Shown here piece after piece: positions 52,528-60,406 of a stretch of DNA of 64,000 nucleotides (position 1 is the first letter of the stretch; the number at the start of each line of letters is the position of its first letter). The notes under the pieces were generated by a model. It was not told the DNA's origin and searched no databases. It saw only the letters and a program-made list of their open reading frames with translations. The position numbers and the translations under genes were made by a program. Origin of the DNA: Beijerinckiaceae bacterium (GTDB lineage Bacteria > Pseudomonadota > Alphaproteobacteria > Rhizobiales > Beijerinckiaceae); assembly GCA_004564215.1 (NCBI GenBank), contig CP024846.1:1612001-1676000 (forward strand), read 5' to 3'.

Positions 52528-53391
52528 TTAGTTGAATGCTTCCACTTCGGCACGGATTTCCTCCGCGAGTTTTTGGAGTTCAGCCTCGGTCAGAGACCCG
52601 GCGAGCGCATAATCCGCCCCGTTTTGCCGCCAATAGACCGCAGCCGAGGGGAACTTGCCGGACTTGCGCGTGACCGTGTCGCTGGAATCATCGGAGCGTT
52701 CGACGCAAAGGGCGGCGTCGACGGCCTCCGACTTTGCGTAAAACATGCAGAGCATTTCGCCGAGTTCGCTCGGCATGACCCGTACACCCGCCAGCTTCAG
52801 CCCGCGCGATGATAGGTTTGGCAAAATCAACGCCGTCGCTTCCCCTCGCCGCGCGGCGGCGCCCTTTGGTGCCAGGCGAGCCACCGCGTCCTTTGCGTTA
52901 GGGGGCGGCGCGAAGGCCAGCAAGGCGGAGATCGTCCGGGTCACCAAAGCCTCGTCCGATCTGCCCGTCGCCCCGCTATCTGTGGCCGACGTCTCTTCCG
53001 ACCGGCTCAGCCGATCGAGGGCATATCTCCCGCCGGTCGCCAGGAGTGCCCCGGCCAAGAAAGCCAGCGCAATAAAGCTCGCCGCCCATCGGCGCCAGGA
53101 TTGAAGGGAAGCTACGGCCTGATCGAGTTTGCTGGCCTCGCTCCCCCCAGTTCCGCTCTCGGTCGGAGGAACAGCCGGCCAGGACAGATGGATCGGCTCG
53201 TTTTCAACCGAAGCGAAAGCGGCACGGATGGTTTCGTTCTGTCGCCGCCACGCTTGAACCCGGGCCGCGTCGGCCGGTGAATTGGCGAGAAAATTTCGGA
53301 CCGCCTCCCGGCGTCCGGGCTCCAGATCGCCATCGACGAAGCCATGCAACTCCGCTTCAGTCACCGGGGGCCGGGAGCCGCTGTCAGGCAT
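52528..53391 (-). CDS. Membrane anti-sigma factor
   Basis: 287 aa. N-terminal anti-sigma segment (HGFVDGDLEPGRREAV, residues 15-30), one membrane helix (about 105-125, WAASFIALAFLAGALLA), and a C-terminal periplasmic domain. It starts 6 nt after the sigma factor gene, the usual order for an ECF sigma / anti-sigma pair. No Cys/His zinc motif is seen at the N-terminus. Confidence 0.85.
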   Translation of the reverse strand: MPDSGSRPPVTEAELHGFVDGDLEPGRREAVRNFLANSPADAARVQAWRRQNETIRAAFASVENEPIHLSWPAVPPTESGTGGSEASKLDQAVASLQSWRRWAASFIALAFLAGALLATGGRYALDRLSRSEETSATDSGATGRSDEALVTRTISALLAFAPPPNAKDAVARLAPKGAAARRGEATALILPNLSSRGLKLAGVRVMPSELGEMLCMFYAKSEAVDAALCVERSDDSSDTVTRKSGKFPSAAVYWRQNGADYALAGSLTEAELQKLAEEIRAEVEAFN

Positions 53392-53397
53392 CAGTTT

Positions 53398-53931
53398 CTA
53401 TTTGACCACTCGCAGATAGGCAGGGCGAGGCTTCGGCGGGTGCACCAAAATTTCGGCCGGAGAATTCTGCCGCAGGGCCACTCGCGCCCGTGACACACGG
53501 GCAATCAGCACCGCGCGAGAGATTTTCAGAATCCGCGCGGCGTTCGCATAGCTGAAACCTTCGAGAACAACCAGCAGCAAGGCCTCGCGCTCCTCGAGCT
53601 TCAAGGCGGCAAGCGAACCTGCAAGCTTGTCCTGAGGCGAGGCAACAAGCGGAATTTTTTCAGCGGCATGCGGTCCGCCGCTCAATTGCTGAGTCTTGGC
53701 ACCCTGCCGACCGGCGGCAAGGGCCTCACGATGCCATTCCGTGAGAAGCGAATAAAGATGGAGGTAAAGCTCGATTTTTCGGAAGCTGGCCCCGGTTTCA
53801 TAGGTGCGCAGGACCACGGCATTCACCAAATCGTCGGCCATTTCGTTAGGCCCCGGTTGGCCGCTGACGAGCGCCCGCGCATAGCGGCGTAACCGCGGCG
53901 CACACCGATCCAGATGCTCTCGCAAGCTCAC
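53398..53931 (-). CDS. ECF-type RNA polymerase sigma factor
   Basis: 177 aa. Region 2 (RYARALVSGQPGPNEMADDLV, residues 15-35) and region 4 with the helix-turn-helix FSYANAARILKISRAVLIARVSRAR are visible. The region 2 core is somewhat degenerate. Paired with the anti-sigma factor downstream. Its stimulus is unknown. An EcfG-like promoter motif lies about 265 nt upstream (54197-54222). Confidence 0.88.
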   Translation of the reverse strand: MSLREHLDRCAPRLRRYARALVSGQPGPNEMADDLVNAVVLRTYETGASFRKIELYLHLYSLLTEWHREALAAGRQGAKTQQLSGGPHAAEKIPLVASPQDKLAGSLAALKLEEREALLLVVLEGFSYANAARILKISRAVLIARVSRARVALRQNSPAEILVHPPKPRPAYLRVVK

Positions 53932-54261: not shown

Positions 54262-55110
54262 ATGACGCAACCGGGAATTTTTACGCCTGGACGACAAACT
54301 GCGGGAATCCTCGCGGGAAAACGGGGCTTGGTCCTCGGGCTCGCCAATAATCGGTCGATCGCTTGGGGAATCGCCAAGGCTGCCCATGAGGCGGGTGCCG
54401 AACTCGCCTTCACCTTCCAGGGCGAATCGCTCGAAAAAAGGGTCCGGCCCTTGGCCAAGGAACTCGGCGCCCATGTGGTGGGAGATTGCGATGTCACCGA
54501 CCCCGCGACCCTGGACGCCGCCTTCAAGCAAATTGAAAGTATTTGGGGGAATTTAGACTTCGTTGTGCACTGCGTGGCCTTTTCAGACAAGGATCAGTTG
54601 ACCGGCCGATATATCGACACGACAGCGGACAACTTCAGCAATTCTTTGCTGGTCTCCTGTTATTCTTTTACCGCCGTGGCGCAGCGCGCCGAAAAATTAA
54701 TGCCCAACGGCGGCGCGATGTTGACCCTCACGTATTATGGCGCGGAAAAATGGATGCCCCATTATAATGTGATGGGGCTTGCCAAGGCTGCGCTTGAATC
54801 GAGCGTCCGCTATTTGGCCGCGGATCTGGGCGAGCGCAACATTCGGGTCAACGCCATATCGGCCGGACCCATTAAGACTCTGGCGGCCTCCGGCATCGGC
54901 GACTTCCGCTATATTCTGAAATGGAACGAGTATAATGCTCCGCTTCGGCGTACGGTGACGATCGAAGAAGTCGGCGAGAGCGCCGCCTTTCTTTTGTCCT
55001 CAATGGCCCGCGGCATTACCGGCGAAATCCTTCATGTCGACGCGGGCTACCATGTCGTTGGCATGAAAAACCCCGCCGCCCCCGATATTTCCGTTCTTGG
55101 CAAGGATTGA
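54262..55110 (+). CDS. fabI: Enoyl-ACP reductase (NADH)
   Basis: 282 aa short-chain dehydrogenase-type FabI. Cofactor loop GLANNRSIAWGIA (residues ~26-38), catalytic Tyr and Lys in YNVMGLAK (Tyr-x6-Lys), and family segment GPIKTLAASGI. Final reduction step of fatty-acid elongation; the isoform is the triclosan-sensitive type by family. A short non-core N-terminal extension (about 15 residues) precedes the fold. Confidence 0.94.
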   Translation: MTQPGIFTPGRQTAGILAGKRGLVLGLANNRSIAWGIAKAAHEAGAELAFTFQGESLEKRVRPLAKELGAHVVGDCDVTDPATLDAAFKQIESIWGNLDFVVHCVAFSDKDQLTGRYIDTTADNFSNSLLVSCYSFTAVAQRAEKLMPNGGAMLTLTYYGAEKWMPHYNVMGLAKAALESSVRYLAADLGERNIRVNAISAGPIKTLAASGIGDFRYILKWNEYNAPLRRTVTIEEVGESAAFLLSSMARGITGEILHVDAGYHVVGMKNPAAPDISVLGKD

Positions 55111-55515
55111 GGCGTTCACTGGCCATTCAGTTGCGAACGCCCATTGTCTCGCGTTGGAACCTGGGATCGAGCTGAAGCACGGCAATTCGAGCACGACAAA
55201 GTTCGGGCACAAAAGAAATGTTTAGTGCAATTTCGGTATTCTAAATTCCAACATCGACATTCATCCAGATCATGATCGACGTGCGTCAGCGCACCGAGAC
55301 TTAATTAAATCGTCTTCAAGGGTCGATAGAGCACAGTCATGGAATTGTTTCCGATCGATGCTTCGGTCCTGCCAAGGGCGCGGGCGACGGTTCGGGGTCA
55401 TCCCGCAAAGCCTTAACATTCAGGGCGAATTTGCCAATCGGCAAATGCATTTCAGCATGATCGCACGTGCGGTCCAAGCTGGGGTGTTCGGGAGCAAAGG
55501 CAAACGGAAATAGCT
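55111..55515. other. Intergenic region before the NRPS gene
   Basis: 405 nt with no gene supported. Starts with the inverted pair GGCGTTC (55111-55117) / GAACGCC (55135-55141), possibly the fabI terminator. An AT-richer zone at about 55230-55315 is the likeliest promoter region for the NRPS gene. A GGAAA ribosome site lies just before the NRPS ATG. Confidence 0.5.
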
Positions 55516-58500
55516 ATGTTGCACACGCTGGCAATCGCCTCTGCTTCCTCCGAAATTGACGAGGGCAAGACCCTTCCCTTCAAAGCCGGCGCGATTTTGC
55601 ATGGTCCCCTCCGGCCGGATTTGATTCGCGACGAACTGCTTTGTGAAATTTTTGCGGCGACCGTTGCGAGAGACCCCTCCGCCACCGCGATGATCACGCA
55701 GGAGGGCAAGCTTTCCTATGCTGAAGTCGACGCACGCGCGGAGGCACTCGCAAAAGGGCTGTTGCGCAAGGGAATCCGGCCGGGCCGCATCGTCGGCCTC
55801 TGGATGCCGCGCGGCCATGAACTCCTGATCGCACAGATCGCGATCGCCAAGACCGGCGCCGCCTGGCTTCCCTTCGACGCCGACGCGCCGGTGGAGCGCA
55901 TTGCCGTCTGTCTGTCCGACGCCGAAGCCCGTGGCGTTCTGACCTCCGCGGACCTTGTTGCCGAAATTGCCGCCCTGGCAGCTTGCCCGGCCTGGACGTA
56001 TGCCGAAGTCCTGACCGATTCTTTGGACGTTGCGGACACCGAGCTCGACGCTCGCTCCCTTGGCGCACGTCCCGACGATCCCGCCTATCTCATCTACACC
56101 TCGGGGTCCACCGGGACCCCAAAAGGAATCGTCATCTCGGGCCGCAACATCTGCCATTATTTGCGTGCCGCCAACGAAACATACGGGGTCCGCGAGACCG
56201 ACGTCGTGTTTCAAGGTGCTTCGGTCGCCTTTGATCTTTCGATGGAGGAAATCTGGCTTCCCTATCTGGCTGGCGCGGCCCTTTTCGTGGCCAGCGCCGA
56301 GATGATGGGGGAAGCCGACAAGCTTCCCGGTCTTATGGAAGAAAATCGCGTCACGGTCCTCGATACCGTGCCAACTCTGCTTGGTCTCCTACCCCGCGAC
56401 GTCTCGACCTTGCGTTTGATCATCCTCGGCGGCGAAGCCTGCCCGCCGGCGATTGCCACGCGCTGGTGCGCGCCGGGGCGGACGATCTTCAATTCCTATG
56501 GGCCGACGGAGACGACGGTGGTCGCAACCGTCGCGGAAGTGCTGCCCGGCCGGCCTGTCACGATCGGCCGTCCCATCGCCAACTACACCTGCTATGTGGC
56601 GGATGATCGTCTCGATCTTCTCCCGCCCGGCGTTGAAGGCGAGCTCCTCATCGGCGGCCCCGGAGTGGCGAAAGGCTATTTGCGCCGCGACAGCCTGACA
56701 CGCGAGAAGTTCATCGCCAATCCTTATGCTTCCCTTGGCGCCGATCCGGTCCTGTACCGGTCGGGCGATGCGGTCGAGATCGATGGCAATGGCGAGATCG
56801 CGTTTCGCGGGCGGATCGACGATCAAGTGAAAGTCCGCGGTTTTCGCGTCGAACTCGGCGAGATCGAGGCCAAGCTCGCCGATCTTCCCGGTGTTGGGCA
56901 AGCCGCCGTTGTCCTTCGCAACGATTTCGAAATCGAGCTGCTGGTCGCATTTATCGTTCCCGCCTTGGATGTCGAAATCGACACGCGGCAGCTTCGCAGC
57001 GAACTGCGGGCGGTCCTGCCGGCCTATATGGTGCCGGCACGGTTCGAACTGCAAAACCTCCTGCCTCGGCTCTCGTCCGGCAAGATCGACCGCAAGAGCC
57101 TGAAGCAAATATCGCTCTCCGCCAGCGACGGGAATGAGGCGCAGGAAGACCCCCGCAATGAGACGGAGGCGATCCTCCTCGCCGCTGCCAAGCGCGTGCT
57201 GCCGCCGCAGACGATCCCGTTCGACGCCGACTTCTTCACGGACCTCGGCGGTCATTCGCTTCTCGCGGCGCGTTTCATCTCGGTTGTGCGTGAGACGCCG
57301 GCGCTGTCGCGCATTACTTTGCAGGACGTCTATACGGCTCGTTCTCTACGCGCGATCGGCGAACTTCTCGATCAGAAATGGGCGCGGACCGCCAAGCCCG
57401 AGGATCTCTCTTTCACCCCACCGCCGCTGCTGCGCCGATTCCTATGCGGCGCAGCCCAGGCGCTTGCGCTGCCGGTTATTCTCGCGCTGGTGACCGCCCA
57501 ATGGCTGGGCGTGTTTGTCAGCTACATGTTGCTGACCGGGGCCGACGCAAGTTTCTTTGAGGAAGTGATCTCGCTCATCGGCGTCTATATGTGCATCAAT
57601 ATCGCAACGGTTGCCATCGTCATCGCCGCGAAATGGTTGATCATCGGCAAGACCAAACCCGGCCGCTATCCGCTGTGGGGAGTCTATTTCTTCCGCTGGT
57701 GGCTGGTGAAACGTTTTCTCGGTCTCGTCCATCTCAAATGGTTCCAAGGTTCTCCCATCATGCGGCTGTATCTGGCCGCGCTGGGCGCGAAGATCGGCAA
57801 GGACGCGATCATCGGCGAAGTCGAACCGGGCGCCGTCGATCTCATCTCGATTGGCGCCGGCGCCAGTCTTGGCTCGATCACCAATTTCGCCAATGCGCGG
57901 GTCGAGGGAAATGAGCTGATCATCGGCACGGTCGAAATCGGCGCCGGCGCCTATATCGGCTCGTCCTGCGTCATCGAAGAAGATGTCGTGATCGCGGAAG
58001 GCGCCGAAATCGCAGATCTGACTGCGATCGGCGCGGGTGGGCGCATCGGAGCCTATGAGGTTTGGGACGGCTCGCCGGCTCGTAGGGTCGGCATGGTCGA
58101 TCGCGCCGCCCTCGACGCACCCTCGACGGCCTCGGGCGCACAGCGGCGTGCCATGGGCGTGATGTATCTCGTCCTGCTGCTCGCCATTCCTCCCCTCGGC
58201 CTGTTGCCGATCTTTCCGGCCTTTTGGGTCTTCGACCGGATCGACGATCTGATCGGGATCGCCGATTTCGATCGCACGCTTTACATGCTTTCGATCCCGA
58301 TCATGGCCTGGCCGACCGCCTTCGTGATGGTTCTCGTCACGGTCGGGTTCATCGCGGCCTGCCGTTGGATCATCCTGCCGCGCGTCCGCGAAGGGACCTA
58401 TTCGGTCCATTCCTGGTTCTATTTCCGAAAATGGGCGGTGGCGCTTGCAACCGAGGTCACGCTCGAGACTTTATCGTCCTTGTTCGCGACCGTTTACATG

Positions 58501-59592
58501 CGCGTCTGGTATCGCCTCATGGGCGCCAAGATCGGCAAGGACGCTGAGATTTCGACCAATCTGTCCGGCCGTTACGATCTTGTCGAGATTGGGGAGAAAT
58601 GTTTCATTGCCGATGAGGTTATCCTCGGCGACGAAGAAATCCGCAACGGTTGGATGTATTTGAAACGGGTCAAGACCGGCCCGCGCGTCTTTGTCGGCAA
58701 TAGCGCCGTCGTACCGGCCGGAACCGAAATTCCGGCCGATGCGCTGATCGGCATCAAGTCGAAGCCGCCCGCAAATCATTTGATGCACAAGGGCGATACC
58801 TGGTTCGGATCGCCACCGATCAAACTGCCGGTCCGCCAGACGTTCGATGCCGGTACCAATTGGACCTATGAAGCGCCGCGCTGGAAGAAATTCGCGCGCG
58901 CCTGCTTCGAGGCGGTCACGATTTCTCTTCCGACCATGCTGTTCATCACTTTCGGAACCTGGGCCGTTGAATGGTTCAGCGCCAGCGTGCTCGCTGGAGC
59001 CTATTTCCAAATGATGTGGCAGTTTACGGTCGCCTCGGTGGCCATTTGCTCGGCTCTGACGGCATCGGTGATCATCTTGAAATGGATCACGATGGGGCGC
59101 TACGAGCCGATGGTGAAACCGATGTGGTCCTGGTGGGCGATGCGGACCGAGGCGGTTGCGGTCATCTATTGGGGCATGGCCGGCAAGGTTCTGCTCGATC
59201 ATTTGCGGGGAACCCCTTTCCTCCCCTGGGTCATGCGCCTGTTCGGCACGAAATTCGGGCGTGGGGTCTATATGGATATGACCGACATCACCGAATTCGA
59301 CTGCGTGCATGTCGGCAATTACGCGGCGTTGAATGCGTTGAGCGCCTTGCAAACGCATCTTTACGAGGATCGCGTGATGAAGGTCGGCAAGGTTTTTGTC
59401 GGCAACAGCGTGACCGTCGGCGCCGGATCCACCGTGCTTTACGATACGCTGGTTTCCGACCATGCCCGCTTGGGACCGCTGACCCTGGTGATGAAGGGCG
59501 AGCAAATTCCCGCCAATTCCGAATGGGCGGGCGCGCCCGCGGAGCCCAGGGCGGTGCCGCACTCCACGATCATCCATAAGGCTGCCGCCTGA
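55516..59592 (+). CDS. Pls/PosA-type membrane-bound single-module NRPS
   Basis: 1358 aa. Adenylation domain (about 25-535) with A3 IYTSGSTGTPKG (193-204), A4 FDLSMEEIW (239-247), A5 NSYGPTETT (326-334), A8 GRIDDQVKVRG and A10 SGKIDRK (521-527). Carrier domain with GGHSLL, pantetheine site Ser581. Then six membrane helices in three pairs (about 645-710, 880-950, 1135-1190), each pair followed by a left-handed beta-helix hexapeptide-repeat region (e.g. GAKIGKDA). No condensation, epimerisation or thioesterase domain. This is the layout of epsilon-poly-lysine synthetase (Pls) and PosA. A polymer of one amino acid is the predicted product. No frameshift seen; it is a single-gene unit. Confidence 0.88.
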   Translation: MLHTLAIASASSEIDEGKTLPFKAGAILHGPLRPDLIRDELLCEIFAATVARDPSATAMITQEGKLSYAEVDARAEALAKGLLRKGIRPGRIVGLWMPRGHELLIAQIAIAKTGAAWLPFDADAPVERIAVCLSDAEARGVLTSADLVAEIAALAACPAWTYAEVLTDSLDVADTELDARSLGARPDDPAYLIYTSGSTGTPKGIVISGRNICHYLRAANETYGVRETDVVFQGASVAFDLSMEEIWLPYLAGAALFVASAEMMGEADKLPGLMEENRVTVLDTVPTLLGLLPRDVSTLRLIILGGEACPPAIATRWCAPGRTIFNSYGPTETTVVATVAEVLPGRPVTIGRPIANYTCYVADDRLDLLPPGVEGELLIGGPGVAKGYLRRDSLTREKFIANPYASLGADPVLYRSGDAVEIDGNGEIAFRGRIDDQVKVRGFRVELGEIEAKLADLPGVGQAAVVLRNDFEIELLVAFIVPALDVEIDTRQLRSELRAVLPAYMVPARFELQNLLPRLSSGKIDRKSLKQISLSASDGNEAQEDPRNETEAILLAAAKRVLPPQTIPFDADFFTDLGGHSLLAARFISVVRETPALSRITLQDVYTARSLRAIGELLDQKWARTAKPEDLSFTPPPLLRRFLCGAAQALALPVILALVTAQWLGVFVSYMLLTGADASFFEEVISLIGVYMCINIATVAIVIAAKWLIIGKTKPGRYPLWGVYFFRWWLVKRFLGLVHLKWFQGSPIMRLYLAALGAKIGKDAIIGEVEPGAVDLISIGAGASLGSITNFANARVEGNELIIGTVEIGAGAYIGSSCVIEEDVVIAEGAEIADLTAIGAGGRIGAYEVWDGSPARRVGMVDRAALDAPSTASGAQRRAMGVMYLVLLLAIPPLGLLPIFPAFWVFDRIDDLIGIADFDRTLYMLSIPIMAWPTAFVMVLVTVGFIAACRWIILPRVREGTYSVHSWFYFRKWAVALATEVTLETLSSLFATVYMRVWYRLMGAKIGKDAEISTNLSGRYDLVEIGEKCFIADEVILGDEEIRNGWMYLKRVKTGPRVFVGNSAVVPAGTEIPADALIGIKSKPPANHLMHKGDTWFGSPPIKLPVRQTFDAGTNWTYEAPRWKKFARACFEAVTISLPTMLFITFGTWAVEWFSASVLAGAYFQMMWQFTVASVAICSALTASVIILKWITMGRYEPMVKPMWSWWAMRTEAVAVIYWGMAGKVLLDHLRGTPFLPWVMRLFGTKFGRGVYMDMTDITEFDCVHVGNYAALNALSALQTHLYEDRVMKVGKVFVGNSVTVGAGSTVLYDTLVSDHARLGPLTLVMKGEQIPANSEWAGAPAEPRAVPHSTIIHKAAA

Positions 59593-59629
59593 GATTGAAG
59601 GTGGACTCGATTGGTCCTTTCTCAGGAAT

Positions 59630-60406
59630 TCAAAGAAGGGCGATCGCCGCCACCTGCCGTCCATAGTCCGGCTCATTGCGATGGATCGAGCGGCGATAGG
59701 AATAAAACCGCTCGGCATCCGCATAGGTATCCTGTCCGAGGTCTTCACAGGATCCGATGCCCGCGAGCCGCAATCGCTCCGCGATAAAGCCCGGCAGATC
59801 GAACATGAAATGCCCGGCGCGTTCCGAGGTCGAAAAGAAGCGCGCATGGTCTTGCGAGGCCGCAAGGAATCGGTCTAAAAATTCACCGCCGACTTCATAG
59901 GTATCGCGCGAGATCATCGGGCCCAGCACGGCGACCGTCGAAGAGCGGTTGGCGCCAATCGACTCCATCGTCGCGAGCGTCGCTTCAAGCACACCGGTGA
60001 GCGCGCCCTTCCAGCCGGCATGCGCGGCCCCGATCACGCACGCCTTCATGTCGGCGAACAGAATCATGCCGCAGTCGGCGCCCGTGACCCCGAGGCCGAC
60101 GCCTGGCGTCGAAGTGACCAAGGCATCGCATCGGGGGCGTTCGGTGAATGGCCGGGTCACCACCAATGCATCGGGCGAATGGGTTTGAAACGGCACCAGA
60201 AGATGCGCCGGCTCAATCCGAAGATAAGCCGCCATCCGGCGGCGGTTTTCGGCAACGGCTTGTGGATCGTCCCTTGAACCAACCCCGCCATTCAGCGTCG
60301 CATAAATTCCGGTCGAGACCCCGCCTTGCCGGGTGAAGAATCCATGGGTCAAGCCCGGCGCCTCGAGAACGGTTGCAGAGAGGGGATTTGCCATTTGTTG
60401 GGTCAT
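59630..60406 (-). CDS. pgeF: YfiH/LACC1 family (peptidoglycan editing factor-like)
   Basis: 258 aa. Cu/Zn-type active site residues in FQTHSPDAL, GADCGMI (Cys) and AAHAGWKG (His) are all present. The family has purine nucleoside phosphorylase / adenosine deaminase activity, and PgeF has been linked to peptidoglycan precursor quality control. ATG 60406 overlaps the methyltransferase stop by 4 nt. Confidence 0.88.
   Translation of the reverse strand: MTQQMANPLSATVLEAPGLTHGFFTRQGGVSTGIYATLNGGVGSRDDPQAVAENRRRMAAYLRIEPAHLLVPFQTHSPDALVVTRPFTERPRCDALVTSTPGVGLGVTGADCGMILFADMKACVIGAAHAGWKGALTGVLEATLATMESIGANRSSTVAVLGPMISRDTYEVGGEFLDRFLAASQDHARFFSTSERAGHFMFDLPGFIAERLRLAGIGSCEDLGQDTYADAERFYSYRRSIHRNEPDYGRQVAAIALL

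What the first reader, a model, noticed from the sequence alone, without database searches (positions are those of the whole stretch)
55516..59592. Pls/PosA-type NRPS predicted to make an amino-acid homopolymer
A single adenylation and carrier module is joined to three membrane-plus-beta-helix repeats and no condensation or thioesterase domain. This is the architecture of epsilon-poly-lysine synthetase, known for making long isopeptide chains. It stands alone without biosynthetic or transport neighbours and in a proteobacterium, where its product is uncharacterised. Potentially a new polycationic polymer.
Basis: partly seen in the sequence, partly recalled or inferred. Interest (0 to 1): 0.7.

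Follow-up and report, generated by a model that had tools for sequence, protein, structure and literature searches.

The report
Pls/PosA-type poly-amino-acid synthetase, alphaproteobacterial clade
This gene encodes a membrane enzyme of a known kind that probably strings one positively charged amino acid into a short polymer; it belongs to a branch common in its bacterial family whose building block has not been worked out.

Summary
ORF 55516-59592 (+, 1358 aa) has one adenylation domain, one carrier and a C-terminal module of three membrane-plus-left-handed-beta-helix repeats, with no condensation or thioesterase domain. It scores 599 bits against NCBIfam TIGR02353 "Pls/PosA family NRPS" (cut-off 423). 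So it is a member of a named, annotated kind (antiSMASH "NAPAA"). "Uncharacterised in proteobacteria" is wrong for the kind (PosA of Acinetobacter makes delta-poly-L-ornithine) but right for this branch: pocket code DLEDIGSVVK matches no substrate-assigned code that I saw in print, and its code group was already noted in rhizobia, Methylobacterium and Bosea.

Added here: (1) DLED enzymes form one clade, sister to the PosA clade; (2) 139 of 199 genomes sampled from its family have a TIGR02353 match, and 42 of 45 family loci fetched have the DLE code; (3) many sit beside fabI, and some relatives without it have fabI next to aroC; (4) one near-invariant histidine, H1281, in the third repeat only, suggesting one condensation site in a pseudo-trimer.

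Best guess: an isopeptide-linked polycation of L-ornithine or a near homologue. Product and role untested.

The parts
55516..59592 (+). Pls/PosA-family poly-amino-acid synthetase gene, 1358 aa (A-T-[TM2-LbH]x3)
   Evidence: start codon not confirmed (the open frame is 1391 codons stop to stop)
55651..56682 (+). Adenylation domain core (residues 46-389), holding pocket residues D240 L241 E244 D283 I303 G305 S327 V335 V336; the tenth, K523, lies in the C-terminal subdomain
   Evidence: PF00501 270.8 bits; pocket by alignment
56860..57084 (+). Adenylation C-terminal subdomain (residues 449-523)
   Evidence: PF13193
57184..57369 (+). Carrier (thiolation) domain, residues 557-618; phosphopantetheine serine S581
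   Evidence: PF00550; serine in 79 of 79 aligned sequences
57433..58101 (+). Repeat C1 (residues 640-862): two membrane helices then left-handed beta-helix
58141..58851 (+). Repeat C2 (residues 876-1112)
58879..59553 (+). Repeat C3 (residues 1122-1346), proposed seat of the condensation active site
59350..59382 (+). Q1279-T-H1281-L-Y-E1284-D-R-V-M-K1289 motif; H1281 is the only histidine kept nearly throughout the C-terminal module (78 of 79, the other a gap)
54262..55110 (+). Enoyl-ACP reductase (fabI-type), frequent upstream neighbour; not part of the synthetase
   Evidence: PF13561; upstream within 5 kb in 65 of 126 DLE-code loci, 0 of 26 others

Best explanation
A stand-alone, membrane-anchored homopolymer synthetase of the Pls/PosA (cationic homo-poly-amino-acid, NAPAA) kind. 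Steps: (1) the A domain adenylates one diamino acid, most likely L-ornithine, then 2,4-diaminobutyrate or lysine; inferred. (2) The residue is loaded on the phosphopantetheine arm at S581; the serine is shown in the sequence, loading is inferred. (3) The C-terminal pseudo-trimer of left-handed beta-helices, which should lie on the same side of the membrane as the carrier because each repeat follows a pair of membrane helices, joins the thioester to the side-chain amine of another monomer or of the growing chain. I propose that H1281 of repeat 3 is the general base and that repeats 1 and 2 are structural or bind the chain; inferred. (4) Repetition without a thioesterase gives an isopeptide-linked polycation, released at or through the membrane; inferred from Pls and PosA. 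In this bacterial family the gene looks like an old chromosomal resident near fabI, under purifying selection; its role is unknown. Confidence: family membership about 0.97; cationic isopeptide homopolymer about 0.8; ornithine as monomer about 0.45.
For: TIGR02353 599 bits over a 423 cut-off and no C or TE domain. The highest-scoring solved structure that matches by one single stretch is the PosA A domain: 8g95, 404.8 bits, 577.6 bits with a profile; entries listed above it in those tables score over two stretches or none that pass alone. An Acinetobacter baumannii protein (L208) is 43.3% identical overall and 51.3% in the A domain, and its extracted code is the DMEHNGTVSK printed for PosA (code). 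On the tree the DLED sequences form one clade (SH-aLRT 100) whose sister is the clade with that protein (100), and other DMEH-code rows branch just outside. D240 and E244 match the two residues essential for the two amines in PosA; S327 keeps a hydroxyl where PosA has T304; Leu at position 2 is similar in size to PosA's Met, against Ala in Pls and Phe in the DAP/DAB enzymes. D283 stands at position 4, where bacitracin synthetase's ornithine domain carries its acid. Repeats and fold. Sole nearly invariant histidine. The repeat-3 profile matches galactoside O-acetyltransferase (3ftt, E 3.3e-9); the NeuO paper states that crystallised members of that fold family share a catalytic histidine on a loop protruding from the beta-helix (PMC3046976, passages). 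The genome has three PF01648 (phosphopantetheinyl transferase) matches over the cut-off.
Against: The pocket is not the PosA code: PosA's S313, whose removal costs 183-fold, is V336 here, and H260/N280 are D283/I303. No characterised Pls, PDAP or PDAB sequence is in my trees; only pocket codes stand in for them. H1281 as catalyst is inference: the two better hits of the repeat-3 profile are QdtC (in short pieces) and a gamma-carbonic-anhydrase-like protein, and further gamma-carbonic anhydrases follow, so the sequence match does not single out the acyltransferases; HMMER aligns the family histidine to a His a few residues after the first His of the loop in 3ftt. I had no model coordinates. Earlier mutational work on the three domains exists that I could not read (title only). 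A Rhodococcus homologue keeps Q1279 and H1281 but not E1284, K1289, Y1309, K1327 or E1329. Polymer, linkage and export are untested.
Confidence: 0.78

Rival explanations
1. It polymerises a substrate outside the known set (for example arginine or a modified diamino acid), so the product is a new polymer.
For: A code beginning DLED or DLES is shared by 126 of 152 near-full-length relatives examined (a set biased to close kin) and matches no assigned code printed in PMC10522769. One enzyme with a differing pocket (Bdellovibrionales) showed modest activity with arginine and not with the known diamino acids in that paper.
Against: Positions 1 and 3 are kept and position 2 is similar in size to Met; the sister clade holds the poly-ornithine enzyme's homologue.
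Confidence: 0.2
2. It loads one amino acid and transfers it once to an acceptor (lipid, glycan or small molecule), an aminoacyltransferase rather than a polymerase.
For: The beta-helix repeats resemble one-step acyltransferases. Wide retention in one family and location near fabI would fit a housekeeping envelope role.
Against: Full-length membership of a family whose tested members polymerise (PMC10522769); the fabI link is explained by inherited gene order, since some relatives without the gene have fabI beside aroC.
Confidence: 0.12
3. A decaying or non-functional NRPS remnant.
For: None found.
Against: Intact frame; carrier serine in 79 of 79; dN/dS 0.048-0.17 in 8 of 8 pairs.
Confidence: 0.01

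Closest known systems
PosA, delta-poly-L-ornithine synthetase of Acinetobacter baumannii (PMC10522769)
   Same: Same domain order, lone gene, sister clade; 43.3% identity over full length to an A. baumannii homologue with the published code
   Different: Pocket DLEDIGSVVK instead of DMEHNGTVSK; separate clade; substrate not tested
Epsilon-poly-L-lysine synthetase (Pls, Streptomyces albulus)
   Same: Same architecture as described in PMC10522769; its A-domain structure 7wew is matched
   Different: Ala at pocket position 2 per PMC10522769, Leu here; three uncharacterised Ala-code sequences lie outside the PosA+DLED group
NAPAA cluster of Bosea sp. NBC_00550 and seven other complete Bosea genomes, code DLEDLGTVVK (PMC10508160)
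   Same: Same code type; of four Bosea/Boseaceae loci looked at here, three (L163, L166, L179) give the printed code and one (L160) gives the window's own DLEDIGSVVK
   Different: I and S instead of L and T at positions 5 and 7; product not reported there either
Left-handed beta-helix acyltransferases (type B chloramphenicol acetyltransferase, galactoside O-acetyltransferase)
   Different: Three copies in one membrane chain instead of separate subunits; one conserved histidine, in one repeat; the donor would be a carrier-bound aminoacyl group

Membership tests
Pls/PosA cationic homo-poly-amino-acid synthetases (NCBIfam TIGR02353) | C-terminal NRPS_term_dom over its curated cut-off | tested here: met
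   599.1 bits v 423.1, residues 647-1342
Pls/PosA cationic homo-poly-amino-acid synthetases (NCBIfam TIGR02353) | Single A and T domain, no condensation or thioesterase domain | tested here: met
   Pfam scan lists only AMP-binding, AMP-binding_C, PP-binding and Hexapep
Pls/PosA cationic homo-poly-amino-acid synthetases (NCBIfam TIGR02353) | Three repeats of a membrane helix pair and a soluble domain | tested here: met
   hhalign between repeats and AlphaFold2 model
Pls/PosA cationic homo-poly-amino-acid synthetases (NCBIfam TIGR02353) | Asp and Glu at pocket positions 1 and 3 | tested here: met
   D240, E244; rule from PMC10522769
Pls/PosA cationic homo-poly-amino-acid synthetases (NCBIfam TIGR02353) | Isopeptide-linked homopolymer as product | not testable with these tools
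   Needs expression and mass spectrometry
PosA subgroup (delta-poly-ornithine) | Pocket code DMEHNGTVSK | tested here: not met
   DLEDIGSVVK
PosA subgroup (delta-poly-ornithine) | Position inside the clade of the A. baumannii protein | tested here: not met
   Sister to it; SH-aLRT 100 for each clade, quick tree without bootstrap
Pls subgroup (epsilon-poly-lysine) | Ala at pocket position 2 | tested here: not met
   Leu241; rule from PMC10522769
Left-handed beta-helix acyltransferases | Hexapeptide beta-helix fold | tested here: met
Left-handed beta-helix acyltransferases | Catalytic histidine on a loop out of the beta-helix | tested here: inconclusive
   One conserved His, in repeat 3 only; alignment register uncertain

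The most novel reading that the evidence does not exclude
The DLE(D/S) clade makes a polycation of a monomer not yet known from this enzyme family, kept as a common, old chromosomal trait near fabI across a family of methylotrophs, methanotrophs and plant or soil bacteria, where it serves the cell itself (envelope or surface) rather than acting as an occasional antibiotic.
Probability: 0.15. Interest if true: 0.6.

Novelty: new member of a known kind. Interest (0 to 1): 0.35.

Why it matters
Few of these polymers have a known monomer. A TIGR02353 gene is found in 139 of 199 genomes sampled from one alphaproteobacterial family, and 42 of 45 such loci fetched share one unassigned pocket type, so one adenylation assay plus one polymer assay would inform many genes. 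The single conserved histidine in repeat 3 gives a direct test of how the condensation step works; the PosA paper says that there was no structural information on that domain. Why a polycation synthetase is so widely kept in these bacteria is an open question.

Tried and rejected
Second Pls-type gene in the genome: none over the cut-off; two weak hits of 18-20 bits only. A conserved biosynthetic or export partner: I clustered neighbouring ORFs within 5 kb in 126 DLE-code and 26 other loci and looked at the 25 largest clusters by a 60-residue excerpt each; I recognised housekeeping genes (fabI-type, aroC-type, DnaJ-like, cysteine-desulfurase-like, and a sigma-factor-like gene) and no transporter or amino-acid gene, but some excerpts I could not name, some clusters look like antisense frames, and ORFs under 100 aa were not called. 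Functional link with fabI: not favoured. I took 14 fabI regions (of 15 family genomes without a TIGR02353 hit that I searched); one of them, L198, turned out to hold the start of the gene at a contig end. Of the other 13, six have aroC after fabI: within 100 bp in L195 and L201, 0.7-1.9 kb away in the other four; seven show no aroC in the stretch taken. Sigma-70 promoter-like sites over 55000-59800: 0 found, 1.5 expected, uninformative. Literature on this code's product: nothing beyond PMC10522769 and PMC10508160 in searches; PMC10353431 (passages) lists one polylysine-like NAPAA cluster in each of two Methylorubrum extorquens strains; PMC11237726 holds none of four terms looked for. The structure searches mostly align repeat 1 and Foldseek's query-normalised TM-scores are low (0.14 or less in the rows shown), as one domain of a long model is matched; repeats 2 and 3 were judged by sequence profile and by the model's strands. 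No model coordinates were available, so no distance from S581 to H1281 was measured. The second AlphaFold2 job was not used.
Full report
Observation. The ORF at 55516-59592 on the plus strand (1358 aa) is as reported. Pfam gives AMP-binding 46-389, AMP-binding_C 449-523, PP-binding 557-618 and a hexapeptide stretch, and no condensation or thioesterase family. NCBIfam TIGR02353, named Pls/PosA family non-ribosomal peptide synthetase, covers 647-1342 with 599.1 bits against a cut-off of 423.1. The genome (3,326,434 bases, one contig) has 15 AMP-binding matches but no second TIGR02353 gene over the cut-off.

A possible active site. Of the alignment columns that hold a window residue between 640 and 1346, one is histidine nearly throughout: H1281 in repeat 3, 78 of 79, the other a gap. 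The next highest are 1229 in repeat 3 (40 of 79), 739 in repeat 1 (38) and 965 in repeat 2 (37). The residues aligned to H1281 are A794 in repeat 1 and E1040 in repeat 2, and histidine is not among the five commonest letters there. Around it Q1279, E1284, K1289 and the run M1326-K-G-E1329 are 97% or more conserved in the 79 and invariant in a 29-sequence sub-alignment. An exception among later additions: the Rhodococcus protein (L211) keeps Q and H but not E1284, K1289, Y1309, K1327 or E1329. The repeat-3 profile finds QdtC (E 7.6e-11, in short pieces), a gamma-carbonic-anhydrase-like protein (8.6e-10) and galactoside O-acetyltransferase (3.3e-9), then more of both kinds. NeuO work states that crystallised members of that fold family share a catalytic histidine on a loop protruding from the beta-helix (PMC3046976, passages only). 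I therefore propose one condensation site, in repeat 3. The residue register at that loop is uncertain, and published mutational work on the three domains, known to me by title only, may already bear on this.

Pocket. By alignment the ten pocket residues are D240 L241 E244 D283 I303 G305 S327 V335 V336 K523. Of 152 near-full-length relatives, 126 have DLED or DLES; seven shorter or odd loci were left out, the set is biased because 80 of the loci were the closest matches of one scan, and some genomes occur twice. The PosA paper lists D-L-E-D-I-G-T-V-(T/V/I)-K in archaea, rhizobia, Methylobacterium and others as a unique signature. The paper's rule for position 2 (Ala in the Lys enzyme, Met for Orn, Phe for DAP/DAB) and the tree favour ornithine. 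Against it, PosA's S313 is V336 here.

Phylogeny. In trees built without the pocket columns, the DLED sequences form one clade (51 rows, SH-aLRT 100; 53 rows, 100, from which the long-branch rows L101 and L073 were left out). The sister group is the DMEH clade holding the A. baumannii protein (100). DMEH itself needs three changes on the tree, so the DLED pocket may have arisen inside an ornithine-type lineage; this is inference. Trees used the quick method, without bootstrap, and hold no characterised Pls, PDAP or PDAB sequence.

Distribution and place. TIGR02353 at E <= 1e-50 is found in 139 of 199 genomes of the family, its own included (136 over the cut-off; 34 of 43 genera), and at E <= 1e-80 in 42 of 249 of an order sample and 25 of 299 of a phylum sample; the last two include members of the family. 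The family figure is a lower bound: one 'negative', G056, has a 253-residue stretch 59% identical to the start of this protein at a contig end (L198). Of 45 family loci that I chose across genera, 42 carry the DLE code, two DFEA and one DMEH. Named relatives among the 80 closest include Methylocapsa, Methylocella, Beijerinckia, Methylosinus, Rhodoblastus, Azospirillum, Paramagnetospirillum, Methylobacterium and Bosea.

Neighbourhood. Within 5 kb, a fabI-type gene lies upstream on the same strand in 65 of 126 DLE-code loci (48 within 1.5 kb) and in 0 of 26 others; an aroC-type gene is found in 47 of 126, downstream in 46, and in 0 of 26 others. The fabI identification rests on PF13561, the aroC one on my recognition of the sequence. 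Of 13 fabI regions from family genomes without the gene, six have aroC after fabI, two of them within 100 bp. So the synthetase often sits at an old site and was gained or lost there; many DLE-code loci lack fabI nearby, so the place is not fixed. In the window the downstream neighbour is a laccase-domain gene instead. A Rhizobium plasmid relative has a phosphopantetheinyl transferase gene 8 bp downstream; the window's genome has three PF01648 matches in frames of 243, 166 and 291 codons. Eight of eight pairs show dN/dS of 0.048-0.17.

Verdict. A correct observation of a known kind of enzyme. It is a new member of the Pls/PosA family in an already noted but unassigned pocket group; the additions here are the clade's sister relation to PosA, its wide presence and recurrent site in one family, and the single conserved histidine. 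Product, linkage and biological role remain untested.

Noticed in passing
L067:6771-13004 (+), genome G095: The DFEA-code homologue sits in a 2078-codon open frame with about 720 extra codons before the A domain; a Pfam scan of the first 766 codons found nothing, and the frame is stop to stop, so it may be partly non-coding.
   Followed up: partly
L075 (G208): The A-T part (839 codons) and the C-terminal part (1118 codons) lie in separate open frames, a natural split or a sequencing break.
   Followed up: no
L071 and L072 (G148): One family genome carries two near-full-length DLED-clade copies that are far apart on the tree.
   Followed up: no
window 52528-53931: A sigma-factor-like gene and a hypothetical gene next to it, upstream of fabI, have relatives near the synthetase in 13 and 15 of 50 DLED loci.
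   Followed up: partly
G000:C1:1866664-1884733: The same genome holds large frames with AMP-binding domains (up to 3067 codons), probably an NRPS cluster, outside the window.
   Followed up: no
L209:8011-8628 (Rhizobium sp. CCGE531 plasmid): A phosphopantetheinyl transferase gene follows the homologue directly, a plausible dedicated activator.
   Followed up: no
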